Shown here one piece after another: positions 3,237-55,772 of a stretch of DNA of 64,000 nucleotides; position 1 is the first letter of the stretch, and every line of letters starts with the position of its first letter. A program made the position numbers and the translations under genes. The notes beneath the pieces were generated by a model that ran no database searches, was not told the DNA's origin, and saw nothing but the letters and a program-made list of their open reading frames with translations. The DNA is from Fragilariopsis cylindrus CCMP1102 (Eukaryota > Bacillariophyta > Bacillariophyceae > Bacillariales > Bacillariaceae), in the NCBI GenBank assembly GCA_900095095.1, contig FMBT01000316.1:186001-250000 (forward strand), read 5' to 3'.

Positions 3237-3837
3237 AGTATAGTATAAAATGTAGGATGATAAATAAAATTCAAAAGTATAGGACCAGCAATACTATAAT
3301 TAATTTTTGAATTGAAAAGGAAACGGAAAGAAATCGGAAAAAAAAAGGTTGAGTCACCAAAAACAAAACACAAAGCACGTTGAGTTGATTCATTTTTTGG
3401 TTTTTTCTGGTGTATTTGGTGTTAGTTAGTGTTCAAAACTTAAAAATAAACAGAAGATAATGTATATAAATAAATATTTCTATGTCATGTAAATTGCATT
3501 GCATTGCATTACACTCTCTAATCCTTACATAAATCAATTCGAAACTAAAACAACAACAACAGAGACTCTGCCTTAGATTCACTTCACTCGATTTGTTTTG
3601 GTTTCCGATTTTTTAGACCTTGCTTTACACATTTATTTATCTGTTGTCTATGTCATGTGTGTGTGTATGTATATGTGTGTGTGTTTGATTGTGTGTATGA
3701 AGCTGCGTACTAGCATACCATACATTCCTCAACTAAACCTAGCCACACCACACCACACCACACTTATTGATATGATATGATAGTGCTGCCATAAAATTGC
3801 AGTCAACTGACTAGACTATTATACAGAATACTCTATA
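3237..3837. other. Intergenic region, phosphatase 3' side to Gypsy element
   Basis: This holds the phosphatase 3' UTR with an ATAAATAAA signal near 3260, a TG-rich stretch at 3657-3700 and a short CACACCACACC run near 3745. No gene is visible. It ends in CTATA (3833-3837), one copy of the Gypsy target-site duplication. Confidence 0.55.
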
Positions 3838-4025
3838 TGCAGTGCGCACATTCAAGGGACTTAATTCACTAGTGATTCATCGCTAAATAACAATCAATCG
3901 CTAACAGAACTGCATCCATTACGATGGAAGCAGCTCTCTAGAATAGAACCCAATACTAATGCTTATAATATACATTATCTCACAATAGAAAGCCTCTTCC
4001 CTATATACTAGTCTAGGGCATGGCA
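3838..4025 (+). repeat. Gypsy 5' LTR
   Basis: 188 bp, begins TGCAGTGCGC and ends GGGCATGGCA. It matches 15414-15601 with no difference seen by eye. The 4026-4743 leader follows; I could not identify a primer binding site for a known tRNA. Confidence 0.93.
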
Positions 4026-4743
4026 TGATTTTAAAATCTTACTAATAAGTTATTGACAATAAGATAGGACGTAATATTTTATCTAAAAATGAAGTACTGC
4101 GTACCTCTTGTTCGAAACAAGTAGGCAAGATAGCACTACGAGTGATATCTACTGGGTAACAACCATGGTGGAGAGAAAGCTCCATATACCAGAACGTTAA
4201 CATGATAAGATATGGAGGAGACAGGACGTCCCAACGTATCAACTGAAAGCAATATCAACGCCATCGTTGATATATCATCTTTCTTTGAAAAATCACATGA
4301 TATGATATATCGAAAAGAGTTAGCTACTCTAATCGAATGAGTCAAATCAAAATTGAATCAAACGATGCGCGCAAGCGAAGCATCATTCAATAGAGCACAA
4401 CAGCCAAAATAGGGCATGTGCCAACTCGAAACGCTTAAGTAAGTTAAGTCGTTGAGAGTACTATACGGAATACATAACAATGTATGGATATAATAAAAGA
4501 AATAATTTGAGGATTAGCAACATGTGTAAGGTAACCATTACACAAGCCTACTAAGTAAATGTCAGTTTAAACGAACTGACACAAAGCTGACAGGTGCCCA
4601 ACGGGTTAAATATAGCGATCAATGTCTCAACACTGAGTATCGATATCGAATATTCAGTCGCACGAAATTATAGGAGTGTAATCGAATATTACAACCACAC
4701 AACAACACAAGTTAGATTTAATATTAAAAATATTGATTTGACC

Positions 4744-6069
4744 ATGGCAAAATCCAATCGTAACAGCACTGAAGTGCCAGCCAAGGAAGCAGCCAAGGTG
4801 AAGAAGACCCATAAGGTTACCGGTTATAAACCGTTCCTCTATGAGGCAGAAGGATGGGAGGTAAAAGCACCATCACAGATCCTGAAAACCACTGAAAATG
4901 GAAACAGGCTAGACAACAAGATGTATATTCTACAAGGTGACGAAACACCAGAACAACTCATGTTATGGATCAAGAACTACAATGACAAGATCAACGTATC
5001 TCTTGCACCAGCAGCAAGGCTTACATACCTCAGGCGCATCGTCGACAAGGAGGCACAAACCATTGTAAGCAATGTTGAAACAGCTTTTGAGTCCTATGAG
5101 GACGCAGAAGATATTGATAAGATTGCTGATAGCAGAATCAGAGATGAAATCAGAGATGCATGCCCTGATGATGCTACAATCGACGTCTACTTTAATGCTG
5201 GAACTGCAGCACAAAAGAGAGTGAAGATATCACATATCATCCGAGAATGTATGTATCATCTTAAACTCAAAATATTTGGTAATGAACGGCTTGGACGCTC
5301 AAGTTTTATTCAACTGAAGCGTGCAATCAGAAACATGAAGATCTCACCACAACTGGGAATAGCAGCATGGAGTAAAAGGTTCGATACCTTCCAACTCTAC
5401 CTACCAATGTGTCTTTGGGATGCCGGAGCCAAAAGAGGACTATATCCTCACAAGTATAATGAAGAAGATTGTCGCGAAATATTAGAATTTGCACTATCCC
5501 CAGCATACTTGATTGAATTGCATGATGATGGCTGGTGCCTTCAAAGCAATCCTTATGCCCAATCAATCGCCAAGCTCAAGGAGATTGAACCCGGAATTCT
5601 TAGGCAAGTAAAATTTGCAAAAGAACAGTTACAACAAGCTAAAGATATAGCTGAACTGCAAAAAGGAAAAGGAAAACCTTCCAATACTGCTTCTAAAGAT
5701 AGAAAGCAGAATGGTGGAGGAAAGCGCAAACGCGAATGCGGCACCTGTGGCAAGAACCATGCAGGTGAATGCTGGAAACTCCAGAATGGAGGAGGAAACA
5801 ATAGTGGTCGTAAAGGCAACAACTATAATACCTTCAACAAGGAAGCCAAGCAATACATGAAAGCCATGTTTGCAAGGCAAGCATCAGGCGCAAGCTCCGA
5901 TTCAAGTGATTCCGATGATGAAGACTCTTGGAAGCAAGGATTGAATCAAAAAGAACAGATGCATGTATTGGCATCAGCTGGCTTCGATCCTAGCGAAAGG
6001 AATATCAATTTCGATCCTTCAGATCTTAAACGATACAAGAAGCAAGCCAAGAAGTACTTCAAAAGATGA
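4744..6069 (+). CDS. Gypsy gag
   Basis: This frame encodes the capsid/nucleocapsid protein of the outer element, about 441 residues from the ATG at 4744 (context ACCATGG). The open frame extends further upstream but lacks an earlier ATG. The middle part is helical and capsid-like. A basic Lys/Gly-rich segment carries a zinc-knuckle-like Cys/His cluster (CGTCGKNHAGEC) at about 5734-5775, followed by a Ser/Asp-rich tail. Pol follows in the same frame after a short gap. Confidence 0.85.
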   Translation: MAKSNRNSTEVPAKEAAKVKKTHKVTGYKPFLYEAEGWEVKAPSQILKTTENGNRLDNKMYILQGDETPEQLMLWIKNYNDKINVSLAPAARLTYLRRIVDKEAQTIVSNVETAFESYEDAEDIDKIADSRIRDEIRDACPDDATIDVYFNAGTAAQKRVKISHIIRECMYHLKLKIFGNERLGRSSFIQLKRAIRNMKISPQLGIAAWSKRFDTFQLYLPMCLWDAGAKRGLYPHKYNEEDCREILEFALSPAYLIELHDDGWCLQSNPYAQSIAKLKEIEPGILRQVKFAKEQLQQAKDIAELQKGKGKPSNTASKDRKQNGGGKRKRECGTCGKNHAGECWKLQNGGGNNSGRKGNNYNTFNKEAKQYMKAMFARQASGASSDSSDSDDEDSWKQGLNQKEQMHVLASAGFDPSERNINFDPSDLKRYKKQAKKYFKR

Positions 6070-7099: not shown

Positions 7100-7335
7100 T
7101 GTTGAAATCTTAACACGCACGACGGACAGACCACAAATACCGTTACTATCGCGCACCAATTCAAACAGTAACACAAGCCAGTCAAACACCAATTCAAACG
7201 ACAAGTGCCTATCGCCACTAACACAAGCAACACAGCGTCTCAAGGACAGCCTAACAGCCTAAGATAGAACTCATAAATCGTTTAGAACAACCTTAACAAC
7301 TCAACTAATCTCTTATCTAAACTAGAATCTCAACA
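7100..7335 (+). repeat. Copia 5' LTR
   Basis: 236 bp, TGTTGAAATC to ATCTCAACA, matching 12698-12933 with no difference seen. A short leader (7336-7403) separates it from gag. Confidence 0.93.
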
Positions 7336-11700: not shown

Positions 11701-12860
11701 ACACCAACAAAGACGACATTGATCACTTATTCGCAGCAATCAAAGAAAAATATCCACTCAAAATAGATTGGACTGGATCCAAATATATAGGAATTGATCT
11801 TGAATGGAACTACGAGAAAAGAGAAGTAAAACTATCTATGAAAGGGTATGTTAAAAGAGCACTACAACAATTTCAGCACCCAACACCATCAAAACATCAC
11901 TATGGACCAACGAAATATGTACAACCTGAATATGGAAAGAAAGTACAATATACTACGGAAGATACAACGCCGGAACTCACCCTATTACAAAAGAACCACA
12001 TCCAGAAAGTATGTGGCAAATTCCTATATGATGGAAGATCAGTCGATAGCACACAGTTACACGCACTCAACGAACTAAGCATCAAGGCAACAACAGCAAC
12101 AGAGGACACTCAAGCAGCACTAATACAATTCCTAAACTACTGTGCCAGTAACCCAGATGCAACCATCATTTACAGAGCCAGTGACATGATATTATCATGT
12201 GACAGTGATGCAGCGTACTGTGTCGCACCAAAATCAAGGAGCCGAGCAGGGGGCTACCACTATCTAGGCAACAAAAATGGAACCCAATTCAACGGACCAA
12301 TATATGTACTAGCCAAAATAATCAAAGCAGTAATGGCATCAGCAGCAGAAGCAGAAGTGGGAGCACTATACATGAATGCACAGGAATTAGCACCAATGCG
12401 AACAACGCTAGAAGAACTAGGCCATCCACAACCACCAACGCCACTACGAACAGATAACAGTACAGCAGATGGAATAATGAATAAAACAATCAAACAAAGA
12501 CAAAGTAAAGCAATGGACAAAAGATTCTACTGGGTACAGGACAGAGTGGAACAAGGAGAATACAGAGTATTCTGGGCTCCGGGCAAAGTTAACCTCGCCG
12601 ACTACTACACCAAATACCACTCACCAGCCACACACAGAAAACTAAGACCTATCTACACTTATATTGAAGGTAAGAGCCCAACTAACTTGCAAGGGTGTGT
12701 TGAAATCTTAACACGCACGACGGACAGACCACAAATACCGTTACTATCGCGCACCAATTCAAACAGTAACACAAGCCAGTCAAACACCAATTCAAACGAC
12801 AAGTGCCTATCGCCACTAACACAAGCAACACAGCGTCTCAAGGACAGCCTAACAGCCTAA
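8703..12860 (+). CDS. Copia pol polyprotein
   Basis: A frame of about 1385 residues. An aspartic-protease-like segment lies near 8900. The integrase core (about 9615-10000) has its acidic positions in NFADLKG, RIDNEF and AERAIQTVKNHF. The reverse transcriptase (about 11150-11850) has VVDDFGVKY as active site. RNase H (about 12190-12620) includes CDSDAAY, AEAEVGALY and RTDNSTADG. The last 54 codons lie inside the 3' LTR, where the stop also sits. The start is uncertain because no early ATG is present; expression by read-through from gag is the likely route. Confidence 0.9.
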   Translation, partial: QGGEVNSKISQNKINSTDLNNYTSSSRTNKHISYAAAVTSNSRSTRLSTLTNNLKALLVTTPQGHPDSAATSMFLANKHKYLGEPLHHEEINVGVANTNTMNSVTTRQLQLAPELPREAQRAHGFNEMDRSLISVPVLCDADCTVVFKKKNVQVIKENKIIIEGPRDAETNLWLMPLESNNNNTVKPIKRPFVIQLKHTANSAYQQKSASQLQAWHHATLGAPVVTTLIKAIDKNWLTSFPGLTSNGIRKHLPKSIQTTMGHLHKVRKNLRPTDKVTTDDIMEDEEDDPDYLPPREIKNREHIVQITAVNFADLKGMTSSDQTGAFPNTSSRGNRYIMVMEDSDSGAILAVAIKSRNKEHLLAGFIEMHETLKKAGINPVLHRIDNEFSKELIAEIESRGLKYQIAPRGNHRTIPAERAIQTVKNHFVSTLYGCDPSFPKSQWDRLLQVAVLTLNMLRPSRINPLKSAYNELWGNFDFNKTPLAPPGCLIVAHERPQDRKTWADHGVKGYFIGPAKHHYRNYRVYIPATRGERTTDTIEFFPEHVQMPKTSSEDRLASVTEDLVAILQKPHPPTPFLDQGTTTNDAIDKLREIFTPRQQNNESTRVPAWAATRVVGNPVENQQQFFANQDPNRVGDPVENQQQNFPNQGTNRVATRVALPTITEDEIGTKIMKSYNNTIQRGEVTHYNENERLYFIEYESGDNEQVSSRTLNQFRCIDTDKDLTRRMTRLSTRLQRANIVRQNKNNPSAAGGKLPGHFAMTVYDEATGKMIDYKQLVNHSDKQTRESWQKSAANEFGKLLKGVGKKADGTQRVKGSDTFHFIRRKQVPIGKKVTYARFCCDVRLQKDDINRTRLTVGGDRLQYDGKTSTETAGLETIKIHLNSTISTKNAQYAAADIGNFYTNSKLKSSEYMRIHLSLIPTEIIEEYNVMQYVEADGYAYVEITGAMYGLAQSGRIANEDLQEHLAQYGYHPTKRTPGLWKHKTRPISFTLVVDDFGVKYTNKDDIDHLFAAIKEKYPLKIDWTGSKYIGIDLEWNYEKREVKLSMKGYVKRALQQFQHPTPSKHHYGPTKYVQPEYGKKVQYTTEDTTPELTLLQKNHIQKVCGKFLYDGRSVDSTQLHALNELSIKATTATEDTQAALIQFLNYCASNPDATIIYRASDMILSCDSDAAYCVAPKSRSRAGGYHYLGNKNGTQFNGPIYVLAKIIKAVMASAAEAEVGALYMNAQELAPMRTTLEELGHPQPPTPLRTDNSTADGIMNKTIKQRQSKAMDKRFYWVQDRVEQGEYRVFWAPGKVNLADYYTKYHSPATHRKLRPIYTYIEGKSPTNLQGCVEILTRTTDRPQIPLLSRTNSNSNTSQSNTNSNDKCLSPLTQATQRLKDSLTA

Positions 12861-12933
12861 GATAGAACTCATAAATCGTTTAGAACAACCTTAACAACTC
12901 AACTAATCTCTTATCTAAACTAGAATCTCAACA
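12698..12933 (+). repeat. Copia 3' LTR
   Basis: This copy is identical by eye to 7100-7335. A purine tract (CAAGGG) lies just upstream. The first 163 bases encode the pol C-terminus and stop codon. ACCCC, the target duplication, follows at 12934-12938. Confidence 0.93.
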
Positions 12934-15370: not shown

Positions 15371-15413
15371 CAATAGAAGACTATTTGAATACTTAATATA
15401 GATCGGAGGAGAA

Positions 15414-15601
15414 TGCAGTGCGCACATTCAAGGGACTTAATTCACTAGTGATTCATCGCTAAATAACAATCAATCGCTAACAGAACTGCATCCATTACGA
15501 TGGAAGCAGCTCTCTAGAATAGAACCCAATACTAATGCTTATAATATACATTATCTCACAATAGAAAGCCTCTTCCCTATATACTAGTCTAGGGCATGGC
15601 A
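15414..15601 (+). repeat. Gypsy 3' LTR
   Basis: 188 bp copy of 3838-4025, preceded by a polypurine tract at about 15405-15413 and followed by the target duplication CTATA at 15602-15606. Confidence 0.93.
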
Positions 15602-24717: not shown

Positions 24718-25071
24718 CTAAAGTTCATCATCACCAAAATCACCGGCATCGTCATTATCACCTCCACTAGCACCTCCGGCGTAAACATTCCGCATGATAG
24801 GGTTGGCAACTTGTTCAACATCCTTTTGCTTTTCGTCGTAACCTTCCTTGTCGGCTTCAGGATTTGCATCCATCCAGTCAAGAGTTTCGTCGATCATATC
24901 TTGTAACTCCTTCTTGTCCTCGACAGAGACATTATTTGAACGGGTGTCGCCTTCCATACTGTTCTTCAGGTTGTACAAGTACGATTCTAATCCGTTTCGG
25001 GAATCGATCTGATCTTTGATAATTTTGTCTTCTTCGGCATATTCCTCGGCTTCCTTTACCATACGTTTAAT
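24718..25071 (-). pseudogene. BiP-type HSP70, detached C-terminal fragment ending in DDEL
   Basis: This is the lid and tail of an ER HSP70: IKRMVKEAEEYAEEDK begins at 25071 and the frame runs to a TAG at 24718, ending GDFGDDEL, an HDEL/KDEL-type ER-retention signal. It belongs with the BiP-like part at 28090-29841 on the same strand. About 48 residues normally found between the two parts (after the GIPPAP region and before ERMVKEAEE) are missing, and roughly 3 kb carrying another gene sits between them. Homology starts within five bases of the stop codon of the neighbouring HA-domain gene, so 25071-25076 is a sharp junction. Confidence 0.85.
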
Positions 25072-25075
25072 ACAT

Positions 25076-27361
25076 TTACCAAACAAAATTGATGGAATTT
25101 AGAAGCTCAGTGCGTTTATTTGATAATTTATTCTTCTTGTACAACCCTCGTTGAGAAGCTACCCACTGTCCAAGTTGCAGATCTACGGTATACCGACGTG
25201 GCACTTTGGTTGACATATACTGTTTCTTGTACACCACAAGTTTCTGATACCTTTCCATCCATTTTGAATCTTGTGCATTCCAAACAAAAGCAAATTGGCA
25301 TCGCTTTCCGTTACAGCTAAGCGAATTAATATACACACGTTTGGATCCGACCAGCTTGTCTTCAAATTCAACCGTAGCCCTCGCTGGAATCGTTTTACCA
25401 GGTTTCATGACACTCTTTACGATTCCAGTTCCAAAGTTCGCTTGGATGACCGGATCATGCATCGCTAGATCATGCATAGTAACATTAGTAATGGTAGGTG
25501 GCGGACAATAGTATTTCGTCAATGCCAAAGATTTTGCATGATTTTCCAGTCGTTGTTCATACGTCAGTAATGCTAAACTCTTCTCGTATCCTAACAAACC
25601 ATTTGCCTGTCGTTGTTCGTACGTCAGTAATGCTAAACTCTTCTCGTAATTCGCTAGACGTTGTTCGGGGGTCAGTAATCCTAAACCCTTCTTGTATCCT
25701 AACATACCATTTACCTGATGTTGTTCCTTGGTCAGTAATCCTAAACTCCTTTCGTAATGCGCAATTTGCATTCGGTGGATCTTTTTTTCTAATGCTCTTG
25801 ATTGATCACTTGTTCTATTATCATATAAAGTTACATTTTTCGCTGCCATGAATGTTGATTCTTTCTTTCTATTACTCAAACGATGGAGCACTGGTTTCAG
25901 CTTTGAGGGTTCTTCGATGTTAATTAATAGTAAGACAAGTTTCCCATTAGATCCATTATTGAAGATGGGGGTGTTCAAAATCCTATCTACACCATCTTGG
26001 GTGTTTAATCCAAGAACACCAGTAGTTAATTTTATTTCTCCATTCATAGCGTCTTTGGTCGGTGCACCAAATGCTAGATGACAACCATTAGAAGCAAGAA
26101 TCAAACATTCCACATTTTGCTGTATACCGTGGACTAACGGTGCTCTATCCACTGGACCAGCTCGTTTGCGACTACACATTTTGAACAACCACTTGTCTTC
26201 AGTAAGAAATGAATCTTTCTTCTTAGGACCTATACAAATAGTAATGGAAGATTAGAATGATAATAAATAATTCATGAACAATACAATTGAATTACATTAG
26301 ACGACATATGTATACGTAGAATAAACAACAAGAAAAAACCTACCACCGTTATACAGTTTGTGGTTCCTCTGTGATGGACTGCTCTTTTCGTTCACCCATG
26401 ATGATCGTGTAGTTTTGTGATGACCTTCAATCCCACTACATTTACAAATTTCCAAAACTCGACTGTCATCATCATCCTGTAGCACCCACCGTGCTAGGAG
26501 ACCATGTTGGCATAGACGCAGGACTTGTTGTTGTAGTTCTTTCCTTGTACTTGCGGACAGATCACTTTTTTCGGCCAAACGGATACTAAAACCGGGTAAT
26601 GCAACTTGTGTAGGCGTGACTAAATCGAGTTCCAGCATTCGTTTTATGACATCCTTCATTTCCATAGCAGTATTGGGTTGAAACTCTACCATTGATGGAA
26701 TGTCCTTGTGCTCGTCTTTGTCTGAATCTAGTTGAAGTTGTTTTTTGGCACTCCGATGTGGTTGTCGCCTGGTACTAATGCCTTTTAGCTTCTTTTTTGG
26801 TGGTGGTTGAATGATGTCGTTCTCTCGACGTTTTTTGCCGATGTCGTTCTCTCGACGTTTTTTGCCACTCCGATGTGGTTGTTGTCGCTGGGTACTAATG
26901 CCTGATTTGATCATCTTCTGTGCACCTTTTTGCTTCTTTTTGGTTGGTTGTTGAAGATTAAATTGATGCAATCCAAGTTGTTGTAACAGTGTTTGATTCC
27001 GTTGAATACGTTCTAAACGAAGACGTTCATAATTAGATAGTCCATCATTGGGTTGATTAGTATTATCTTCATTGTCATTGTCATCGTCATCGTCGTCATC
27101 AGACGATGATGCTGAATCTTCTTCTTCATCATCATCATCATCATCATCGTTGTCATCATCATCCTCATCATCGTTGTCATCATCATCCTCATAATCATCA
27201 AGGTCATGGTATTCATTCGTCATTGACAGTGGCGGCTGCAGTGGCGGCGTTGTGGTAGCATATGACGCTCGGTTACGAATTGGTGAAATTGATGCCCAGT
27301 ATTTTGATTCTGTACAGTGCGCTTGTAATTCTTTTGGTATCTCGTATGACGGTGTGTCCAT
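25076..27361 (-). CDS. Two-exon helicase-associated (HA) domain protein with LLTxEQR repeats
   Basis: Exon 1 is 27361-26344 and exon 2 is 26229-25076 (donor GTAGGT, acceptor TATAG), 723 residues in all. The first half is low-complexity: an Asp/Glu run, then Lys/Arg-rich stretches with two KKRRENDI repeats that resemble nuclear localisation signals. Exon 2 holds about five units of the type YEKSLALLTYEQR, alternately 16 and 20 residues apart, then a segment FGTGIVKSVMKPGK. The C-terminus is a helicase-associated domain (WMERYQKLVVYKKQY, KVPRRYTVDLQLGQWVASQR, LLNSINFVW), a module frequent in diatom nuclear proteins. DNA or chromatin binding is inferred. The frame ends exactly after the domain's final Trp, at the junction with the HSP70 fragment, so the native C-terminus may have been longer. 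Confidence 0.75.
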
Positions 27362-27406
27362 TGTACGACGGAATTCTTGTTGTTCTTGTGTTGTCTCTCG
27401 CTTCAA

Positions 27407-28038
27407 TTTTGAAATTAAGTTGCTGTACAGTGTACAATTAGTTGACGATTAAGTTTTGTGAGAGTATTAAATGAAGATGTGAAAAACAATGAATTGATGA
27501 TTTGTTCATTTGATTATTTTCCTCTCGTCTTTCCCTTCTTAGCAACGTAGACAGAGTACTAGATCCTACGTGAAATCATTTCCATAATGGAAAGATGACT
27601 CAGGAGTCATCTTTCAATTCCCATCGCGTTGCTAGGTCACTCCCACCGTCGTCTTAATAATGCAACACGGACATTATATTCGCCGTGCTTCTATTAGCAA
27701 TGTTAACTCCCATTCCACTCTTGTCTTGTCGGACGGTACGATTTTCATGTTTTTATTCACTGCGCGATGAAATCGCGTATTCACTCTTGTCTTGTCGGAC
27801 AGTACGATTTTCATCATAAGAATGATACAAAAAGATAATAACATTTATTTCATAATATACGCATGTAAGAATTATCATAATAATAATACAAAAAGATAAT
27901 AAAATTTATTTCATAATATACGCATGTAAGAATTATCATAATAATAATAATAATAATATAGTAACTACTGTAGTACCTACTGTAGTAACTACTGTAATAA
28001 CTACTGTAGTAACTACTGTAATAACTACTGTAATAACT
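27407..28038. other. Intergenic part of the insertion, with hairpins and tandem duplications
   Basis: Upstream of the HA-domain gene. It holds a perfect 12-bp-arm palindrome at 27590-27615 nested in longer partial inverted repeats, a 33-bp direct repeat (27716-27748 and 27782-27814, containing CTTGTCTTGTCGGAC), a 61-bp tandem repeat (about 27825-27945) and a minisatellite of TAATAACTACTGTAG units (about 27958-28038). No coding sequence and no trace of the missing HSP70 segment was found here. Confidence 0.6.
27590..27615. repeat. Perfect palindrome (12-bp arms)
   Basis: GAAAGATGACTC, AG, then GAGTCATCTTTC. It is flanked by a second imperfect palindrome (ATTTCCATAATGGAAA, 27578-27593), and by TTAGCAACG at about 27539 with CGTTGCTAG at about 27627, so a multi-stem structure is possible. 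The function is unknown; it could be a terminus or recombination relic. Confidence 0.6.
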
Positions 28039-28089
28039 AGTGCTGTCATTACCTCCTATTTTCATCATATCAGTATTAATAAGAAAGCG

Positions 28090-28091
<2 letters not shown>
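28039..28091 (+). repeat. 53-bp patch copied from the FUSC-like gene
   Basis: 28039-28091 matches 35450-35502 at 51 of 53 positions, the first 43 without any difference. In the FUSC-like gene the sequence is ordinary coding sequence ([14 protein letters not shown]). Here it sits exactly where the BiP-like reading frame loses homology. It looks like templated filler at a break-repair junction. Confidence 0.88.
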
Positions 28092-29841
<1,750 letters not shown>

Positions 29842-30720
29842 GCTGCAGTTTTCTGTTGAGAGTTTTGTGTTGCTGTTGTGGGTTTTTGCTTGTATAGATT
29901 ATTTGAAAGCTTTGTACTTGTATTGTGGTATTGTTGTTTATGGTCTTATTAATTTGTGAGCTGAAAAGAAAAGGAAAGATAGATTACCGTACTGTATTTA
30001 CTATTGAAACTCATTGCGTCGATTTGAAACCCAATGAATATCTACAGCACGTTTGAAATCAACACGCGTAGTTTCCTCATTAATCTCCACGAGTACAATA
30101 TTTCAAGCGATTAAAAATAATAATAGAGTGAAATACTCAACGCTAACCTCTATGATACTGTTGCTAATTCTCAGCGTGACACTTAGAGTATCTAAAAATG
30201 TCCAGAACAGACACTTTGGTACTAATTCTACATATGCAGTTTCATCCAGTGTCCATTGATATCTAAAAGAAAGTAGCTTTTGAGTGTCCTAGTATCATAG
30301 GTCGGAATCTTATAAGTTAGTGCGGAGTGTAGAGCTGTTAGCTAGCTACAACAAACAAACAAGGAATCGCAACAAAAAAAACAATCTCAACAGATAGAAA
30401 CGAAAAGAATAATGATATGATTTTTAGGCAATGGAATTCTAATTGATTCAAATCTATACAGAAAAAAGGCAATTACACGAAGTCACTTGATATATAGTGG
30501 AATGACATAGGAAGAAATTCTTTTTCTTTTGTGTGATGCCAGCAATAATAACATAACTATCAACTCCCTAAATTAAAGAATGATGACACGGATGACAAGA
30601 ATTCATTCATACTATTATTTCTCTACTAGCTAGCTAACAGTAGTAGCTAACTGGGGTCTACCTTTCAGTCATTATTATTTGAACGCACATGGTAACTGAC
30701 TCCTTCCTTCTCAACCAAGA
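29842..30720. other. Intergenic region with MITE copy A
   Basis: Upstream sequence of the BiP-like gene and downstream sequence of the TPR gene. Apart from the inverted-repeat element at 30136-30326 I see only short spurious ORFs. Confidence 0.5.
30136..30326 (-). mobile_element. Small inverted-repeat element (MITE-like), copy A
   Basis: Reverse-complemented, 30136-30326 aligns along its whole length with 54781-55003. Both copies start CTCCGCACTAAC, and the other end is an imperfect inverted copy of the start (CTMAMRCTAAC ... GATACT). About 190 bp and non-coding, it fits a non-autonomous DNA transposon. No clear target-site duplication was resolved. Divergence between the copies is considerable, so the family is not very young. 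Confidence 0.68.
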
Positions 30721-34945: not shown

Positions 34946-37900
34946 ATGGCATTGAACAAGAACAACAGCAACAACAGCAAACAAGGATGGACGGTGCCGC
35001 GTGATCCACCCTATACGGGGATGCTCCGTGATTTGATGATGAACTTGCTTGGTGCTGCGTGTTATTATTTTGGTCGGCAGTATTATTACGGCAATATTCT
35101 GCATATTACCGAAGCAGGAACGACTGAGACTACTACGACGAGTAGTAGCGACGACGACTTACTACGACCGCCGGTCTATTATTTTAATAATTTATGGTGG
35201 GTCGCCTTCGTACCCTTATTTTCTTCACGGTTTCCACAACACCGTGGTTTGGGCCTAGATATGATGCTCAAGGGATGGATCGGTGCCTCCTGTGCCTTGA
35301 TTTGGTTATGTATCACCATGGGGATCAGTCCGACGAACTGGTCGTGGTTATTGGTGGCAGTCTTTTTGGATGGCTTCGGTACCCATATGGTGCATGTCCG
35401 TGATCGAACCTGGTTGGCTTTTAATGTCTTCCATTTAATGTTATATTGGAGTGCTGTCATTACCTCCTATTTTCATCATATCAGTATTAATACGAATGCG
35501 GATACTGAGAGTGGAGACCGGGTCGATTGGGACTATGTCACGTTGTTAGCATACTCCTTCTTTGTACCGTATTCGATCGGAACAATCATTGCGATTGGTT
35601 GTCATTTATTGTTTTGTCCAATATCATCAACCAAGATACTACAAACAACGTTACACCAAACAGGACACGACGTGGCAACAATATTTCGTACGTTTCGTGA
35701 CAACATGATCTCACCAGCAACGTCATCGTCATCATTTAGTCAGCGTCAGCGTCTGGAACACACGATACAAGGACTACAAGAGGGTGGTACAAAAGTATTA
35801 ACAAAACGGAATCAGTATCGGCAACAGGTTGCCCATGCGTATTTGGAAACACGGTGGAAATTTTCGAATTTCGGCTATATCTTAGAACAGCGTGCCGCCA
35901 ATCAAGCCCGGGTTGCGATGACCGTGAATGCCTTTTGTGATGATGTGACGTATCGATTACAACGTGTCTTAAATTTAGTAGTACTCCCACAAGTAGAAGA
36001 CGAATCCAACAACAACGACGATGTCAACAACAACAAGATGGATGACTTCAAATTCCCGGAGGAATTAGAAACTGTAATCCATGACACGGAAACTTTTATT
36101 GATGACTATTCCAAAACACACCTGGTCAACCATATATCACACATGACGGGACAGAAGAAGCCGATGGGAGGACGGAGTGTATCAAAGACTGATGAGGGCG
36201 AAAAAAAAGACACTGCGAAAGTCCAAAATGATGACGAAGAAGAAGCAGTACCACCATCGTCATCGACAGCAATGCCCAAACGTGAAGAGGGTGAACGTAT
36301 TATTCATAACATCAACGTACTGTTACAACACTACACAACTGCGAATGATCAATGGTTGGATATTGCATCCCATGATACTACTAATACCATGGTGAACGGT
36401 GGTGGCATGGCATCGTCGTGGACGGAAGATCCTATTGTAGCAAAAGAACGGGCTGTAGTGGATCGATTATTTGTCACAATCTTGTATAGTCTACGGAATG
36501 TTATACTGTCATTGATTACGAATGATACATTATTTATAAATACTACACAAACGGGGGGTGGGTACCAAATGTTTGAAGATTGGCGACACCATGATCCGAT
36601 CGGGATGCAGGGTATCTTGAGTTGGTCGTCACATACCGTACGCTCTTCAATCCAACAGGGGGTCGGCTTAGTCATCTTGACCACGATTTTAGTCTACATG
36701 TACGGAGCCGAAGCCGGTACCACACCCGGTTCTTTTGCAATCAATACGTATTGTAGTGTCTTACGACAAGTCTTTGTGGGATGGGCCTGTTGTCGTGTCC
36801 TTGTCCGATGTGGGTACGTTCTACCTATTACCCCTGTGACGTGGTATCAATACTAATGTATCCATGCTTTGTGTACTTATTTTTCTTTTGTCTTGTCTTG
36901 TTTCTCGTCTACAACACGCTTGCACTCACTCACTTTGATGGATTTTTTGTATTTCTCTTTCTATCTTATCCAAATAAACGACAAAAAAGAGGTTTTTTCT
37001 TAGGGTGGTTAGTTGCTGGTATTGTTTATGCCATTGCTAAATATGGCTTCGAGAAGAATTTGGACGACGAAGGTAGTAACAGTCCTCCGGTAACGGTCCT
37101 GTTTTTTATCGTCCATATGATCTTATGTTTGTTTATGACGAGTCAAAAATTCCGTGTGTTCAAAGGGATATGCGGGAAAGAAAAAGTTCGAGATACAGGA
37201 GAAGGTGATCCGCATATGTACGTCTCATATTCGATGGTGGTTGCGTGGATCGTAATTAGTAACGGTTGGTACGGCAATCAAATCGAACCGATAACGATGC
37301 ACGATTTATGCCTTGTTGGGATCGGCGTTTGGACGGAACTCTTCCGTGATTTAGTCGTCCAGGCCTTGTTGGCAAGTGGCGTGGCGGTGTTCATATTGGC
37401 ATTCCTGTTCCCATCGTTCGCGATCGATTACTTGCGTCAACGATTAGGAATGATGTTGGACGTGTACCAAACCTGGTAAGTTAGCTACTAGCGACTATTT
37501 TCCTCCGAATTAAATTTTTCCTTCGACTGTCTCCTCATTTTATATATCTCACTTTTTTGTTCTAAATTGATTCCGTTTATCGTTTTCGTTTTTCACAACG
37601 TTACAAGGTTCAACATCACGACAGTCGTGGATGGGAAACACAAATTGACCGATCTGCATCATAGGGTGTTGCATGATATTGCCCATCAAAGTGATTTGTT
37701 ATTTTTAAAAATCCAACGGAATACTACGAAAAGTCTGATGGTAGAATTATGGTTCCAGCGTGTTTGGACGTTGCTCAAAACATTCAACTTTTTGATCCCC
37801 GAAGAACGGAATCGGGAATTGCAATACCACGAGACTGCCGTGGCGCATTTGCACGCATTGGAATTTTCCCGTCGAATTTGGATATCGTTATGGGAATTAT

Positions 37901-38412: not shown

Positions 38413-39330
38413 TTCTATTTTTACTGCCTGTGTATACGTATATAGGATGCATCTTGTAAATGGATTGTATGGTTATCCTGGATTGACATGGCCTTGCCTT
38501 CATCAATCAAATAGAGAAAAGAAAGCGTTGGTGCATCTAGAATGAGTTTATGACCGAAATTGGTTTTAATAAAGAAATCCGACAGCAATATGCACAGCAA
38601 CTGTGACAAAGGCGGTTGCGGCAACGTTTGATGATGACTTTCGTCATCTCTGTAACCATCGTAACCATATCAACAACGATGATGATGGCAGTTTAGACAA
38701 CGATGGCATGATACAAATTTGTTACTTTATCATATAGATAGCTATCAAGTTCTTTTTATGCATTTTTGTATTGAATGCTGCTGCTGAGTTTACATCCATT
38801 GATTCTATCATATGGGAGTTTCACGTGCAAGCAAGTTCCCTGTTACCATTGATATCTTTATGGTAGAAGGGTTGGGTAGTCAGTCCGTATCTCTGTTGAT
38901 ATAGGGTCCACTGTGTATTGTGTTGAGGAAGCTAGTTACACCTATCTACATTCAACAAGTAATACTGTGTTGGGCGGCGCCCGTTTATAACTAATTTTGG
39001 TGAGCTTTTTTGGTGAGCCAAAGTTAGCCGCCGCGCGCGCATAATGGTATATTTCGATGCCCCAAAATGAAATTTTCAATATAAAGACTAAATCATGCCC
39101 ACATTTTACAAGTATTTGTTAGTCTAGTATATAATAACAACTTTAGCATCAAGTACATGCAACTAAAGGGTCATTTTTTTTGGTAAAAAAGTTATGGAAT
39201 TTACAACTGACCTATTTGATGGAGAACTGTTACATTCCTTGGTCTCCTAAGCCTACTGGTATCTCACAATGTAGGCTCACACACAGCACACATTTTAGGG
39301 ATTTAAAATGTATGTGTACATACAACAAAA
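38413..39330. other. Gene-poor region downstream of the FUSC-like gene
   Basis: A frame without an ATG (about 38565-38740, ATVTKAVAATFDDDFRHLC) could be a last exon or remnant of the FUSC-like gene. A GC-rich patch (GGGCGGCGCCCG near 38974, CCGCCGCGCGCGC near 39030) stands out from the AT-rich surroundings. No other gene recognised. Confidence 0.4.
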
Positions 39331-40062
39331 TATCTCATTTGAAAGTGTTGCAGAGGACAGCTCCTTCTAGGTCGGGTGCACTAGCATTCTTATAGTATAC
39401 TAGAACATTGCAGTTGCCTCCTACCACTTTTTTGTTCCTGTGGTTGTTGAACAAATTACAATCCGCTGTTGAGGAAGGCACACAAACAAAATGATTTTTG
39501 ACCAGAAATGAGCAGCAATACATCTCATTTGCAAGGGTTGCAGAGGACGGCTCCTTCTAGGTCGGGTGCACTAGCATTCTTATAGTATAATAGAACAATG
39601 TAGCTGCCTCCTACCACTTTTCTTTTGCTGTGGTTGTTGAATAAATTACAATCCGCTGTTGTGGAAGGCACACAAACAAAATGATTTTTGACCAGAAATG
39701 AGCAGCAATATATCTCATTTGCAAGGGTTGCAGAGGACGGCTCCTTCTGGGTCGGGTGCACTAGCATTCTTATAGTATACTAGAACATTGTAGCTGCCTC
39801 CTACCACTTTTCTTTTGCTGTGGTTGTTGAATAAATTACAATCCGCTGTTGTGGAAGGCACACAAACAAAATGATTTTTGACCAGAAATTAACAGCAATA
39901 TATCTCATTTGCAAGGGTTGCAGATGACGGCTCCTATTGGATTGGGTGCACTAGCATTCTTATAGTATACTAGAACATTGTAGTTGCCTCCTGCCACTTT
40001 TCTGTTACTGTGGTTGTTGAATAAATTACAATCCGCTGTTGATGATTTTTGACCAGAAATGA
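39331..40062. repeat. 190-bp tandem repeat array, 3.9 copies
   Basis: Units start at 39331, 39521, 39711 and 39901, exactly 190 bp apart, each beginning with (T/C)ATCTCATTTG; the fourth lacks about 30 bp before the conserved end ATGATTTTTGACCAGAAAT. The units differ at a few per cent of positions. Short minus-strand ORFs in them are by-products of the repeat. It resembles a local satellite or minisatellite. Confidence 0.9.
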
Positions 40063-42857
40063 CCAACAGTACTACTACTCATCAATACAACTACACATTC
40101 CTCATTGTTTTCTTCTTCTGCCATCATAGCTTTTTCTATGCTACGACACTCTATGTGATGGTGGTGGAGTTCATAAGTCTAGCAAGCTTTCTTGGCTGCT
40201 GCATATTATTTGGCACGTCATGGAAGGAGAGGGCGAAGAGTATTATTCCAGCACACTGCTCAAAATAGCTACCTGCCAGACCCCCCCCCCCCATGCTTAC
40301 CTTTAGCAGTAGGGATGGTGCTAGCAAACCTTCAATACTGTGGCGTGGCTCATACCAATAGAATTTAAATTCTTGCCTACTGAATAACTAAGATAGCGGT
40401 GATGGTGATGGCGACAGTTGATGATGCTACAGCAGTAACAACATAACAACAACAGTATTTTAATCGGGGGGGGGGGGGGGGAAGGGGGTCAGTGGTGTGC
40501 TGTGTGCCAATGATACAGCAACACAAACAACAGTATCCATTCATAACAACATAAGCAGAAGATTGTGGCAGTGGTGGGCTTATTATTCAATCCATAACAT
40601 CCACTGGGAACACCACCACCTATCATCTGTAGAATTTACAACTGTAATAATAATTGATTCATTACTTGTTGAACTAATGATGCTATTACAGATGGGGGAA
40701 TTGTTTACAAAGAGAAAGAGCTAGCCTATAGATACTCACAAATAACATGCACACATCATGTACACACACAAACACATACACACAAAGGGCCATGCAGTAG
40801 CTACAGGAAGGTTCAATTCCTAATAATTCCTGATACCCTACCCCTAGATAGGTATTACATCATAGTGCAAATTGTTGCATGCTAAACAATGCACCTAGCT
40901 CAATGTGACAGTTTTTTGTCACACACACTTATTTAGTTGATTGTGTGTCACTTGCCAAAAGCCGGTAGTAATAAAGCAGGTTAGTAAATCCCAGCGGTAT
41001 GGTGTGGGCATAGATGTAACTACAGGCATAATATATGTAAGGAGCAGCTGCCAGCGGGAGCTAAGAGCTCAGTCTAATACAGTCAGCGTACAATCAAAAC
41101 TATCAACAATCAGCCATTTAATTGCCGAAGCATTGAATGGAAGCAAGCTAACAAAAAAAACAGATATCATAATAATCTAAATATAACACAGAGCAGTTGA
41201 TAATAATACTCAGATCTATCTCTCCATTGTAGCTCATTGCAGATTTCTGATAACGCTAACTTACTGCATATCATTTTTATCTTTTACTGGTGGTTGGACT
41301 GAGGGATTAACAAAATGGCAACTGACACTATATTCATCATGCTCTGAGGTTCCAAAGAAGTACTACCATAATTTCAATATCGTAGCATACAGGAATTTTG
41401 ATGGCATTAGCATGTGTTGACCCCATGGTTGGAGGGAACTAGATATCCATATATCACCATCAAAATAGTACAAACATGCAATGCAGCTTCTTTATAAGTA
41501 CAAGGGAATGGGGGAATTTTTAATTTCATGGCTGTTGCGTGTTCAATTTCGTCTATGAATGGAACATTTTGTATTCTGTGAAGGTGCAAATGCTGGATGG
41601 CAAGCATGTTTGATGTGGTTTTACATATCAATAATATAAATGCACAGTGCCACAATGGTATATTTGAAAGTTTGATGAGTGGCAAATCATATCTGCAGAT
41701 CTTGAGTTGATAGTAAATTGATGGTGTCATGGAGATGTGTCATACTACTACCCCTCCTAGTACTTCCAGTAGAATAACTAACAATAATAACATATATAGA
41801 CTAGGAGCTAAAAAGTCTGGATTGATACCATATTAAAACAAGGAGAGCCTATTATAAGGAGCCAATAATAATAGTAATAATAATAATTATTACTATTGAG
41901 AAACAACAAGAGGGCTACCACATATTTACAGCAGCAAGGATGCGGCTGATGTCTCACTATTTCATTCTCTCCTATCATATAAGGGGGTGACTGTTGTAGT
42001 TGTGGATTTGAAATGTTGCATGCTCAATTCCTTCTCAAAAAAGAGGGAACAATACAGGTACACGACACATCAAATTGGTTCACAAATATATAATAAGTAT
42101 CTTTTAGCAGTGTAGTGCAATGCATTGCACTGCATGCCTGGTAAAACACAGTACTAGGAGGAGACATAACAGGCGTAAGGCCTAATTGGTTCACAAATAT
42201 ATTATAGAATAAGTCTCATTTTAGCAGTGTGTATGTAGTGCAGAAAACACAGTGAGGAGATAGACATACTAGATGTCTGTAGCCTGATCTGATACTAACA
42301 AGTAGTGATAGAATGATATACAATACAATACAATACAATGCATTATTAGCTGCTATCAATAAGAATATTTTCTGGGTGAAAAACAGAGTAGGAAGGCATG
42401 CGATGCAATGCACACCTGTTACTAACTACTAATGTATGCCTTGCCTTATACTTCTTATCTTACTAGCGAATAGATGGTGAATCAAAATGAGTCTTCATTT
42501 GAAAAATCAGCCTTGTTGTTGTGTTGTGTTGTGATGTGATTTATTCATTTCATTTAATATATCTTGTTGTTCATCCCTTGTACTCGACCCACTACTGCCT
42601 TAACAAGTTGCATTTTTAAATTATTGTACAGTAGTTCAAAACAAAGTGAGGCGGAGGGAAGAATGACGCACGTGTACCGTACGTTCGTCGCTCGTGTACT
42701 GGTACCGTACGTTCGTCGCTCGTAAGCTACGAATAGAGTATATAGGATGGAAGTAGTTAGGTTGATGATGTATGTTAATGATCTGTATTATATATTATAG
42801 TTCTATAGTTTAGTTCTCGTTTCTATGTATTATTCCCAGTTTGATTGATTGTACTTC
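40063..42857. other. Gene-poor region with homopolymers and degenerate duplications
   Basis: About 2.8 kb without a supportable gene. It includes a C run at about 40280-40293, a G run at about 40467-40482, a short TAATAATAAT run near 41870, and an imperfect duplication of about 110 bp (AATTGGTTCACAAATATAT at 42064 and 42184, each followed by TTTTAGCAGTGT and AAAACACAGT). A duplicated CGTACCGTACGTTCGTCGCTCG occurs at 42675-42723 just before the ankyrin gene's 3' end. Dispersed-repeat debris is the likely content. Confidence 0.4.
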
Positions 42858-51212: not shown

Positions 51213-52697
51213 CTAATTAAACGGATGAAAATATTTACCAAGTGCCTTGATCATATCATTAATACCGAGTGTTTTACATCCTTTCTTTAAATGTCCTTGC
51301 TTCATTGATTCGTCACCATCTACATGACCAAAATGATTTTCGTTTTCACTTTCACCTTCAATTTCTTCTTCTTCGTCATCATCATCATCATCATCATCCT
51401 CATCATCATCATTCGAATTGGAATTGGAATTCGAATTCGTTTCTGTGGTGAAGTTTTTGAGATTTTCCTTTAATTTTTCCAAGTCAACATTTACAAGCCA
51501 TTCTTTATCTCTTGCATGATTGATACGTTTAACCTCGTACTCAATTTCATTGTGATAGTAATCTATATCATTATTTTCGGCAACGACGACATTATTGACA
51601 TCATCCATGGTGATGATTCGTTTTCGTTTTCCGACAAGTCCTAAGGTTTTATCAATTTCATTCAAAACTGTTCTATCTCTTGCAGATACATCTATTTCAA
51701 TATAAGGTTCATCTGATATACTTGGTGGTTCACAATGACCAGACGTACCGAATTCTCGTTCAAATTTACAGAAATTAGTGTAGTTGAATTCACCCTTTAA
51801 TCCAGGAGTGAATATTGCACCCTCTTCCATAGATAAATCACCAGCTTCTATAAAATGAAGTGTTCTTTTCCATTTCGATTCAAGTAATACATCCATTGTA
51901 CAATGTAAAAATAAAAAGGTGACGTCTACAGCACCAGCCTTACGTAGTTTCATTTTTGTATAGTCTCTCATTTCACGTCGAATCATCGCAAAAGATAATA
52001 CAACATTATTCTTATTATTCCCACCACTATCGTTGTTATTGTTGTTAGATGATTTTTGTTTTTCTGACGACGTGACCGTCGCCATCTCTAAAGTAAGTCT
52101 AACTAATTCATCAGTATACGGTTGCCATATTTCTTTTGGTGCATCCTTCTCCTTCATCCAATATTTACCAAATGCCTTTGTCATATCACTACTGAGTGTT
52201 TCATATCCTTCCTTTAAATGTCCTTGCTTAAATGGTTGGTCACCATCCACATGACCGAAATTCCAAATGTGTTGTAAGTAATCACCTGTGAATGTCTTAC
52301 CTATATTACAATAAAAATATCATTAGTAAAATGCAGCAATACATAAAAATAATAATAATCAAAAGATGTGAGATGATTCTTCGATTAATCATAATATAAT
52401 ACTCTGAGACTGACGGCATACTACTGTACACCGTCTGATACTATAGAAGGAAGTGACACTTATCGATCGGTAGACTGGTAGATCGAGGGGCGTATAACGA
52501 AATAGTAGATTGCCCATACATGTACACACATACGCGTACATACACACATATACACACAGACAAATACCGAACCGACATATTACACGCACATACTACACTA
52601 GTAGGTTTACGTTACATTTCTTACCCGTTCCCGGATCAGCAACTACGATAATAAATTTAGTCGCATTGATTTTCTTATTGCTCCATTCTGTTGACAT
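51213..52697 (-). CDS. P-loop kinase-like NTPase with duplicated terminal segment, two exons
   Basis: Exon 1 is 52697-52625 and exon 2 is 52300-51213, joined at GTAAGA and TATAG, 386 residues. The intron falls inside the Walker A motif: ADPGTG|KTFTGDYLQ reads A-x4-GKT only after splicing, which strongly supports the gene model. WNFGHVDGD follows, as in small-molecule kinases of the gluconate/shikimate-kinase-like group where HxDGD binds substrate or metal. The middle part (MRDYTKMKLRKAGAVDVTFLFLHCTMDVLLESKWKRT) fits a Rossmann-type kinase lid and core. An acidic run precedes a C-terminal copy of the N-terminal segment (FGHVDGDESMKQGHLKKG). Substrate unknown. It is divergent from the EF-hand fragment at 53184. 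Confidence 0.75.
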
Positions 52698-53183
52698 TTT
52701 GTTTTGATTGTTTTTATAGCTTTTTTTACTTTATGTTATTTGATTTTATGAGCGTGATTTTACTGGATTTCAATGCTTATAAGCTAGCTACAAAATACGA
52801 TTTTAAGTCGCTCAAAAGCGACCCCGACACCGACGAAGACTTCATACGTGAAGTGACTAAATATTTTACGCGAGTAAAGAAAGCGCTCTAGTGAAACCCG
52901 CGTGTATTCAATCCTACGTGATGCATTGCTGAGATGAGAAAGCGCTGTGAACTTCAATGATTGTTTTATGCAAAGAAAACGCGATGCCATAAGTAAAATG
53001 CATGATTTTTAGAAAAGGTGGTGATGAAGTTGCCGGAAAGCTCGTAACAATATTTTAAACATTTTCCACTAAAACAGATCAACAGCGATCACAAAGTGAA
53101 AAGCTACAACACATAAACTAGAAATAAACAAATATTGAAAAACGAGTACAGTATAATAATACCAAGACCAAGATCAAGTCAAG
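52698..53183. promoter_or_regulatory. Shared upstream region containing copy 1 of a duplicated block
   Basis: This lies between the P-loop gene (-) and the EF-hand ORF (+). 52781-53118 is the first copy of the block repeated at 53734-54000. Highly conserved words include GTGAAGTGACTA, AAGAAAGCGCT, AGTGAAACCCGCG, AAAGAAAACGCGATGCCATAA, ATGCATGATTTTTA and AGTTGCCGGAAAGCTCGT. Promoter activity is inferred from position only. Confidence 0.5.
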
Positions 53184-53438
53184 ATGTCTACTACAGATAA
53201 AATGAAGATTCGTGTTTCATCATTACCAGCGTCATTGCGTGGAACTATTGCAACACTTAAGTTAGATAAATATGGTGATGGTGCATTAGATGAAGAAGAA
53301 TTTGCTGTGGCTGTTGATAGTTTTGCAAATGAAACAAAGGATAATTTTAAGCTTAAAAAAAAAGTTAGGGCGCTATGTGCCTTTTCTTTTTTTCTTATTA
53401 AGTCATTTTCGTTACATATTTATATATACCGCACCTAA
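53184..53438 (+). CDS. Short EF-hand protein or truncated EF-hand gene
   Basis: An 84-residue frame from an ATG. It has one canonical calcium-binding loop, DKYGDGALDEEEF (loop positions 1, 5, 9 and 12 acidic, Gly at 6), preceded by SLPASLRGTIATLKL and followed by a basic KLKKKVRAL stretch, then a hydrophobic tail (FSFFLIKSFSLHIYIYRT) that looks like untranslated or intronic sequence read through. EF-hand proteins starting this way are usually much longer in diatoms, so this is probably exon 1 of a gene or a truncated copy. No convincing next exon was found before the second copy of the upstream block at 53734. Confidence 0.5.
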   Translation: MSTTDKMKIRVSSLPASLRGTIATLKLDKYGDGALDEEEFAVAVDSFANETKDNFKLKKKVRALCAFSFFLIKSFSLHIYIYRT

Positions 53439-53733
53439 ATATAGTTCTTCCTGTAGTAGTGCTAGTGTTAGTGTTTGTTGTGGGGGTTGTGGTTTTTGTT
53501 GCTCTTGTTGCTGTTGTTGACCACAAGCATGCCATGCCATATTCGATCACCCAAGAAGAAGACGAGGATTATATTATAGTAGTACTGTATAGTAAAAGCG
53601 CGATGGTTTAAAATATGAAGTTTTCCTTCGCGCGTAAGAAAAGAGATGATATGATCAGTTCGATCTGTTCGACGATCGACGATCGACGACGAGGCATCAT
53701 GTATCATAACGCGAAAGGGATGTCATACGTTAA

Positions 53734-54000
53734 AAGCTAGCTACGAAATGAAGACTTCGACGTGAAGTGACTAGATATATTTTACTCGAGTTAAGAAAGC
53801 GCTTTAGTGAAACCCGCGACTCAGCGCAGTGAGGATTGTTATGCAAAGAAAACGCGATGCCATAATTAAGGAAAGTATGCATGATTTTTATAGAAAAGGT
53901 GGTGATGACGAAGTTGCCGGAAAGCTCGTCATAATATTATAAACATTTTTCACTAACTCAGATCAGCGATCACAAAATGAAAAGCCATCCTAACACACAA
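53734..54000 (+). repeat. Second copy of the upstream block
   Basis: This aligns with 52781-53118 in the same orientation, with a central gap and several small indels; long exact words such as GCAAAGAAAACGCGATGCC are kept. It ends two bases before the ATG of the DUF6824-like gene, whereas the first copy ends about 65 bases before the EF-hand ATG. Confidence 0.85.
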
Positions 54001-54580: not shown

Positions 54581-55772
54581 CAATGAATCTCTCCTAGTAA
54601 AGAAAGGAGTGACAGTAAACCATGGTCTTGATAATTCGGTATATCGTCATGCAGCCACAGCTATCTCCATCACGACCAGAGAATGAATGTTCTATATGGA
54701 TGTCTTTCAAATTATTGGAAGAGCGACTCTCATAAAACAATCATCAAGATTGACAACGGTATTATATCTTGACTACGCAACTCCGCACTAACGTATAGGA
54801 TATCGACTTATAAGATACTCGGACACTTCAAAAAAGCTAATTTTCTCTTCAGATATCAATAGACACTGGACGGACCTACGTATGTAGAATTTTAGAACTA
54901 GTATCTTAGCTGAGTGTCGTGTGTTCTGGATTTTTTCAAGATACTCTTTGTAATCTAGCTGCTAGCTGAAAATTAGCAGTATCTTATATAGGTTAGTGTG
55001 TAGTGTACACTATAATATACTATACATCTGGGTTTTTATCAATACACTACTATGGATGATTATAGTCAGATCGTAAAAAAATAATATAGTATAAAAACTT
55101 ATCTTAGTTAGGGTATCAACTGATCTTCTATATTGACGAGTGCATTGCATGGTTCAACGCGCAAAAAGTCTCATACTAGTAGGATCATTGCTCCGAATCA
55201 TCTAGTTTTACAGATACCGCTTTTCAAGCGTTGTAAAAAAACCAGAACTTTGGGGGTAGAATCGTTTCTAGTAGGGGCCGGGGGAAGGACGATCGACGAC
55301 GACAAGGGTACTAGTATGCGAAATAAGTGAAGATCAGCACCACAAAGAAAAAAGAAAGGAGAAATAAATAAGACAATCCAACAATATACACACCGTAATA
55401 ATCAATCAATACTAACAAAACAGATGATCTATCTCAGATCTGATCTGATCTTCTTCTTTTTCTTCTTCATATCGCAATAACATATCACACGACATCTTCA
55501 TCGCGTATAATAGTTCACCGTCGTCGATCACATCGCCGTCTGTTATTGTATGTAAACAGTTGCCGCAAACCAATCAACCACGCACGCACGCACGCACACT
55601 ATAAATACTACACACACCACCGAGAAAACAGATTGAAGCAATAATAATATTAATAAATAATACAGTAAATCTTGAGACTAACAGTACAATACAGTAACTT
55701 ACAGTATAGGTCCTAGCTAGCTACGTCCGTCCTACAGTCTGAGTAGTACTGTAGTAAGTTAGCTAAATTAAA
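54581..55772. other. Intergenic region with MITE copy B
   Basis: Apart from the inverted-repeat element at 54781-55003 no gene is recognised. A GCACGCACGCACGCAC run lies near 55583 and a CTAGCTAGCTACG stretch near 55712. Confidence 0.45.
54781..55003 (+). mobile_element. Small inverted-repeat element (MITE-like), copy B
   Basis: This aligns over its length with the reverse complement of 30136-30326. The left end CTCCGCACTAACGTATAGG and the reverse complement of the right end, CTACACACTAACCTATATA, are an imperfect terminal inverted repeat, with GATACT slightly further in on both sides. It is non-coding. No target duplication was resolved. Confidence 0.68.

What the first reader, a model, noticed from the sequence alone, without database searches (positions are those of the whole stretch)
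28039..28091. Break junction carries a 53-bp copy of a gene 7.4 kb away
28039-28091 equals 35450-35502 at 51 of 53 positions. At 35450 it is normal coding sequence of the FUSC-like gene; here it abuts the point where the HSP70 frame ends. This is what templated filler from polymerase-theta-like or template-switch repair leaves behind.
Basis: seen in the sequence. Interest (0 to 1): 0.75.

Follow-up and report, generated by a model that had tools for sequence, protein, structure and literature searches.

The report
Copied patch at a repaired break
In a diatom genome, a broken chaperone gene carries a 53-letter patch copied from a gene about 7 kilobases away, the kind of scar that error-prone DNA repair is known to leave.

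Summary
Window 28039-28091 equals 35450-35502 at 51 of 53 positions, same orientation. Three whole-assembly searches find only these two places in 67.9 Mb. The donor copy lies in frame in a single-copy, probably membrane-protein gene. The patch joins a 12-bp minisatellite (1 base shared) to a truncated BiP-type HSP70 gene whose homology to its paralogue stops at 28086; GCGGA is shared at that junction. Templated, microhomology-primed repair is the best explanation. Polymerase theta is not shown: no clear POLQ gene was found, though the search is not conclusive, and the copy is longer and farther than the usual theta filler. The short donor distance is partly an effect of how the pair was noticed (inside one 64-kb window). 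No sister allele is in the assembly, so the empty-site test could not be done. Known kind of scar; modest interest.

The parts
28039..28091 (+). 53-bp patch copied from 35450-35502; certain tract 28039-28085 (46 of 47 identical), with 28087-28091 (GCGGA) shared by donor and HSP70 side
35450..35502 (+). donor segment, in frame (codons 169-186) of a single-copy gene
28086..29841 (-). 5' part of a BiP-like HSP70 gene (PF00012), with a 32-bp gap against its paralogue and a frameshift near 28800; ends at the patch
24721..25067 (-). 3' end of a BiP gene, RMVKEAEEY...GDDEL then stop; 85% identical to the C651 BiP
25068..27448 (-). HA-domain (PF03457) multicopy gene; ORFs 25076-26188 (holds the HA domain) and 26297-27406, taken as one gene by inference because relatives on C596 and C610 match both; relatives 73-90% identical
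27448..27949 (.). dispersed repeats upstream of the HA gene, including a 61-bp unit (2.2 copies, 27813-27949)
27948..28039 (.). 12-bp minisatellite, related arrays on seven other contigs; abuts the left end of the patch

Best explanation
The 53 bp is a templated patch (filler DNA) made while a break, or a collapsed fork, at this BiP-like gene was joined to the minisatellite at the edge of an HA-gene-bearing segment. Inferred mechanism: the HSP70 3' end (minus strand, ending TCCGCT) paired by 5 bases (TCCGC) with the donor gene about 7 kb away, was extended for about 47 nt copying the donor, came off, and was joined to the minisatellite with 0-1 base of homology. Shown: copy, uniqueness in the assembly, boundaries, and the shared bases in today's sequence. 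Inferred: the ancestral HSP70 sequence, the direction of synthesis, copying in cis, and that the 3.0-kb insert and the patch arose in one event. Which polymerase acted is unknown.
For: Unique donor and acceptor. Sharp ends: minisatellite ends at 28039, HSP70 homology ends at 28086. GCGGA shared at the right junction. Base 28086 follows the HSP70 Ala codon (GCT, as in C651) rather than the donor, as expected if HSP70 was the primer. About 49 HSP70 codons missing at the same place. No terminal direct or inverted repeat of 8 bp or more between the insert ends; two 7-mers shared, about one of each kind expected by chance.
Against: No allele or relative without the patch was available, so the order of events is inferred. 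The left junction has no clear microhomology; the 9-of-12 likeness of donor and minisatellite is found near 6% of donor positions. One internal mismatch (28082) needs a copying error or later mutation. The 5-bp homology assumes that the Ser-Ala codons in today's sequence are HSP70-derived; C651 reads CCT GCT there. The closeness of the donor is weak evidence: against the whole assembly P is about 2e-4, but the pair was noticed only because both copies lie in one 64-kb window, and given that P is about 0.23. The two BiP parts differ in divergence.
Confidence: 0.75

Rival explanations
1. Specifically polymerase-theta end joining.
For: Microhomology, a templated copy and a mismatch next to the presumed primer fit the pathway; both mismatches lie in the last 10 bases by the primer (chance 0.033, or 0.065 for either end). 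In Arabidopsis, fillers can come from other molecules nearby (PMC10923293 passages).
Against: No clear POLQ gene: the PF00476 search gave 4 matches at 3 places; one C299 frame is nearer to bacterial Pol I (E 2.7e-47) than POLQ (3.4e-21), and C576 and C83 look by eye like 5'-exonuclease-bearing Pol I-type proteins. HTH_61: 0 of 1, with 3 of 14 control genomes positive, all archaea, so no eukaryote control. The POLQ_helical search is uninformative since its control failed. Introns could hide a gene. C. elegans theta inserts are described as copied from close to the break (PMC4490562 passages).
Confidence: 0.2
2. Replication-based template switching (MMBIR/FoSTeS type) that visited the donor gene and then the repeat array.
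For: Distance of 7.4 kb, copy length of about 50 nt, microhomology with a tolerated mismatch, and a neighbouring insertion of another segment; mismatch-tolerant junction homology is reported for such events (PMC8421209 passages).
Against: Static sequence cannot separate it from end joining; that paper's tool looks only for inverted copies within 100 bp.
Confidence: 0.37
3. Captured fragment: a short DNA or cDNA piece of the donor gene was ligated into the break (class 2 templated insertion).
For: The donor is protein-coding, presumably transcribed, and the patch lies within one ORF, so cDNA cannot be excluded. Once the way the pair was noticed is allowed for, donor closeness says little against capture.
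Against: The 5-bp homology at one junction points to priming, though captured fragments show microhomology too (PMC5110952 passages).
Confidence: 0.2
4. Remnant of a larger local duplication of the donor gene, trimmed later.
For: Other local duplications occur in the window.
Against: No further donor-gene sequence around the patch, and both ends are sharp.
Confidence: 0.08
5. Gene fragment captured by a transposon, or assembly artefact.
For: Dispersed repeats lie beside the patch; the C651 BiP gene shows single-base gaps that look like read errors.
Against: No shared repeat of 8 bp or more at the insert ends examined; the patch itself is not repeated; single-base indel errors do not create a 53-bp copy.
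Confidence: 0.05

Closest known systems
Filler DNA / templated insertions of theta-mediated end joining (C. elegans PMC4490562; Arabidopsis PMC10923293; passages read)
   Same: short templated copy at a deletion junction with microhomology
   Different: about 50 nt from 7.4 kb, where those passages mostly describe inserts from immediate flanks; no clear POLQ gene found here
Class 2 templated sequence insertions (human; PMC5110952, passages read)
   Same: patch from elsewhere, no long target-site duplication, deletion and microhomology at the junction
   Different: here the donor is nearby on the same contig; the paper speaks of distant regions and RNA or cDNA templates
MMBIR templated insertions (PMC8421209, passages read)
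   Same: short copy primed at microhomology with a tolerated mismatch
   Different: that survey takes inverted copies within 100 bp; this one is direct and 7.4 kb away
Filler DNA at maize p1 rearrangements (PMC3014980, passages read)
   Same: natural filler beside a foreign segment at a gene break
   Different: fillers in the passages are 9-13 bp from nearby sequence; here about 50 bp from 7.4 kb

Membership tests
Templated insertion at a repair junction | insert matches one identifiable donor | tested here: met
Templated insertion at a repair junction | insert lies at a rearrangement breakpoint with loss of sequence | tested here: met
   HSP70 homology stops at 28086 and resumes at 25067, about 49 codons missing; judged against a paralogue, not an allele, and the two parts differ in divergence
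Templated insertion at a repair junction | microhomology at junctions | tested here: inconclusive
   5 bp at the right, 0-1 bp at the left
Templated insertion at a repair junction | absent from the unrearranged allele | not testable with these tools
   no second haplotype found with 1801 bp and 2601 bp of the two loci
Polymerase-theta end joining | POLQ gene present and required | tested here: inconclusive
   requirement not testable
Polymerase-theta end joining | template in the immediate flank of the break (usual, not strictly defining: other nearby molecules are reported in PMC10923293) | tested here: not met
   donor 7.4 kb away
Dispersed repeat or transposon | many copies of the 53 bp | tested here: not met
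   2 copies
Transposon insertion | terminal repeats or target-site duplication of the 3.0-kb insert | tested here: inconclusive
   no shared 8-mer, direct or inverted, between 25040-25140 and 27951-28110; one 7-mer of each kind, as expected by chance; shorter duplications not excluded

The most novel reading that the evidence does not exclude
A diatom that may lack canonical polymerase theta nevertheless makes long (about 50 nt), distant (about 7 kb), microhomology-primed fillers while placing whole gene segments into breaks. That would be a theta-independent filler pathway in stramenopiles that moves genes.
Probability: 0.12. Interest if true: 0.55.

Novelty: new member of a known kind. Interest (0 to 1): 0.27.

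Why it matters
It is a well-bounded natural example of a templated patch in a diatom. My searches of the open-access library found no study of such patches in diatoms: 'diatom' with 'templated insertion' gave 1 paper, on cancer genomes; 'diatom' with 'polymerase theta' gave 3, of which I read passages of one, on organellar polymerases; 'Phaeodactylum' with 'double-strand break' and 'microhomology' gave 13, of which 10 were listed and none opened. The locus also shows an HA-domain gene sitting between two parts of a broken chaperone gene, so repair scars may help explain how that gene family spreads.

Tried and rejected
Rejected: dispersed repeat (2 copies only); long transposon ends (none of 8 bp or more); homeology between the donor and the minisatellite as the cause of the left junction (about 6% of donor positions do as well). 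Withdrawn on checking: donor closeness as strong evidence for copying in cis; against the whole assembly P is about 2e-4, but both copies had to lie in one 64-kb window to be noticed, and given that P is about 0.23. For this I raised the captured-fragment rival from 0.15 to 0.20, lowered template switching from 0.40 to 0.37 and the best explanation from 0.77 to 0.75. Two models of the split HSP70 could not be separated: the two parts differ in divergence from the C651 BiP (4-fold sites differing 5 of 30 for the 3' part, 63 of 121 over four aligned stretches of the 5' part, Fisher P = 0.0004), so the 3' part was either overwritten by gene conversion or came from a different BiP copy. A planned count of similar patches over about 1 Mb of other contigs could not be done, so the base rate rests on 84 kb. 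PDB and Pfam searches did not firmly identify the donor protein.

Full report
Observation. 28039-28091 and 35450-35502 agree at 51 of 53 positions in direct orientation; the first 43 bases are identical. The match cannot be chance (E 1.8e-18). In the 67.9-Mb assembly (818 contigs) the patch was found only at these two places: DNA search with 131 bp of the acceptor (75 rows, of which 73 match only the minisatellite end), with 2601 bp of the donor gene (2 rows) and a 43-bp pattern with 3 mismatches allowed (2 forward, 0 reverse, control 0). In 84 kb of this contig, pairs of 28 bp or more at 88% or more that lie over 1 kb apart are this one, two LTR pairs, and three pairs of 30-37 bp of triplet-like simple sequence.

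Organism. The genome holds 27 silicon-transporter rows over the family cut-off, several of them pieces of one gene (control: 1 of 14 rings, 0 of 14 over the cut-off), so it is a diatom; the species was not determined. The C651 BiP gene shows frame breaks in its 3' half and single-base gaps against the window copy that I read as uncorrected indels.

Donor. 35450-35502 lies in frame, codons 169-186, of a 636-aa ORF found once. 'FUSC-like' is only weakly supported (ArAE_2_N, E 0.043, under its cut-off); a hydropathy scan shows a few membrane-like stretches.

Acceptor. On the minus strand a BiP-like HSP70 gene (PF00012) runs from 29841 down. It has a 32-bp gap near 28800 against the C651 BiP gene, and its DNA similarity to that gene ends at 28086, after the codons for GIPSA (paralogue: GIPPA). 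A BiP C-terminus was found 3.0 kb away: 25067-24721 encodes RMVKEAEEY to GDDEL and a stop. About 49 codons are missing between the parts. Between them lie an HA-domain gene of a multicopy family, dispersed repeats, a 61-bp repeat and a 12-bp minisatellite ending at 28039. The patch is thus the HSP70-side edge of a 3.0-kb disruption.

A result against the simplest story: the 3' BiP part is far closer to the C651 BiP than the 5' part (4-fold sites differing 5 of 30 versus 63 of 121 over four aligned stretches). Either the 3' end was overwritten by gene conversion or it belongs to another BiP copy. The patch does not depend on this, but 'one gene split by one insertion' is an inference.

Junctions. 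Right: GCGGA (28087-28091) is in both the donor and the HSP70 side; base 28086 fits HSP70 (GCT as in C651), not the donor. So the sure donor-copied tract is 28039-28085, 46 of 47 identical. Read leftwards, the HSP70 strand ends TCCGC-T: five paired bases with a mismatched last base, then copying, with one further difference at 28082. Both differences lie within 10 bases of the presumed primer (chance 0.033 or, for either end, 0.065), which is only suggestive. Left: one shared base with the minisatellite.

Mechanism. A copy from a unique template, with primer-type microhomology on one side and loss of target sequence, is what templated repair leaves (passages of PMC4490562, PMC10923293, PMC5110952, PMC8421209 and PMC3014980). 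So copying in cis is plausible, not shown, and fragment capture stays open. The enzyme is open too: PF00476 gave 4 matches at 3 places; the C299 frame is nearer to bacterial Pol I than to POLQ, and the other two look by eye like Pol I-type proteins; HTH_61 gave 0 of 1, its positive controls being 3 archaea; the POLQ_helical search had no working control. Template switching fits the length and distance at least as well as theta end joining.

Limits. No allele without the patch is held: searches with 1801 bp of the HSP70 side and 2601 bp of the donor found no second haplotype. No related eukaryotic genome was searched.

Verdict. Real, well bounded and reasonably read as a templated patch; polymerase theta unproven; a new instance of a known kind of scar.

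Noticed in passing
window 3837-4025 / 15413-15601 and 7100-7335 / 12698-12933: Two pairs of 100% identical direct repeats (189 and 236 bp), one pair nested inside the other, with long ORFs between: looks like a recent LTR retrotransposon inside another.
   Followed up: no
window 24721-25067: BiP 3' end much less diverged from the C651 BiP than the neighbouring 5' part (4-fold 5 of 30 vs 63 of 121): gene conversion or separate copy.
   Followed up: partly
L034-L040, and window 27948-28039: Related 12-bp minisatellite arrays on seven other contigs (C518, C412, C337, C52, C324, C182, C139), longer than here.
   Followed up: no
window 39322-40192: Tandem array with 190-bp spacing, four copies; 89-95% alike in BLAST pieces, the last copy only 60% over the full 300-nt reference.
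   Followed up: no
window 51230-53985: Several pieces repeated about 0.9 kb apart (84-90%), an old local duplication.
   Followed up: no
window 30224-30328 and 54780-54891: Inverted pair, 81% over 112 bp, 24 kb apart.
   Followed up: no
L029 (C651) about 4600-5600: The main BiP gene shows frame breaks and single-base gaps that look like uncorrected read errors, so frameshifts elsewhere in this assembly need caution.
   Followed up: partly
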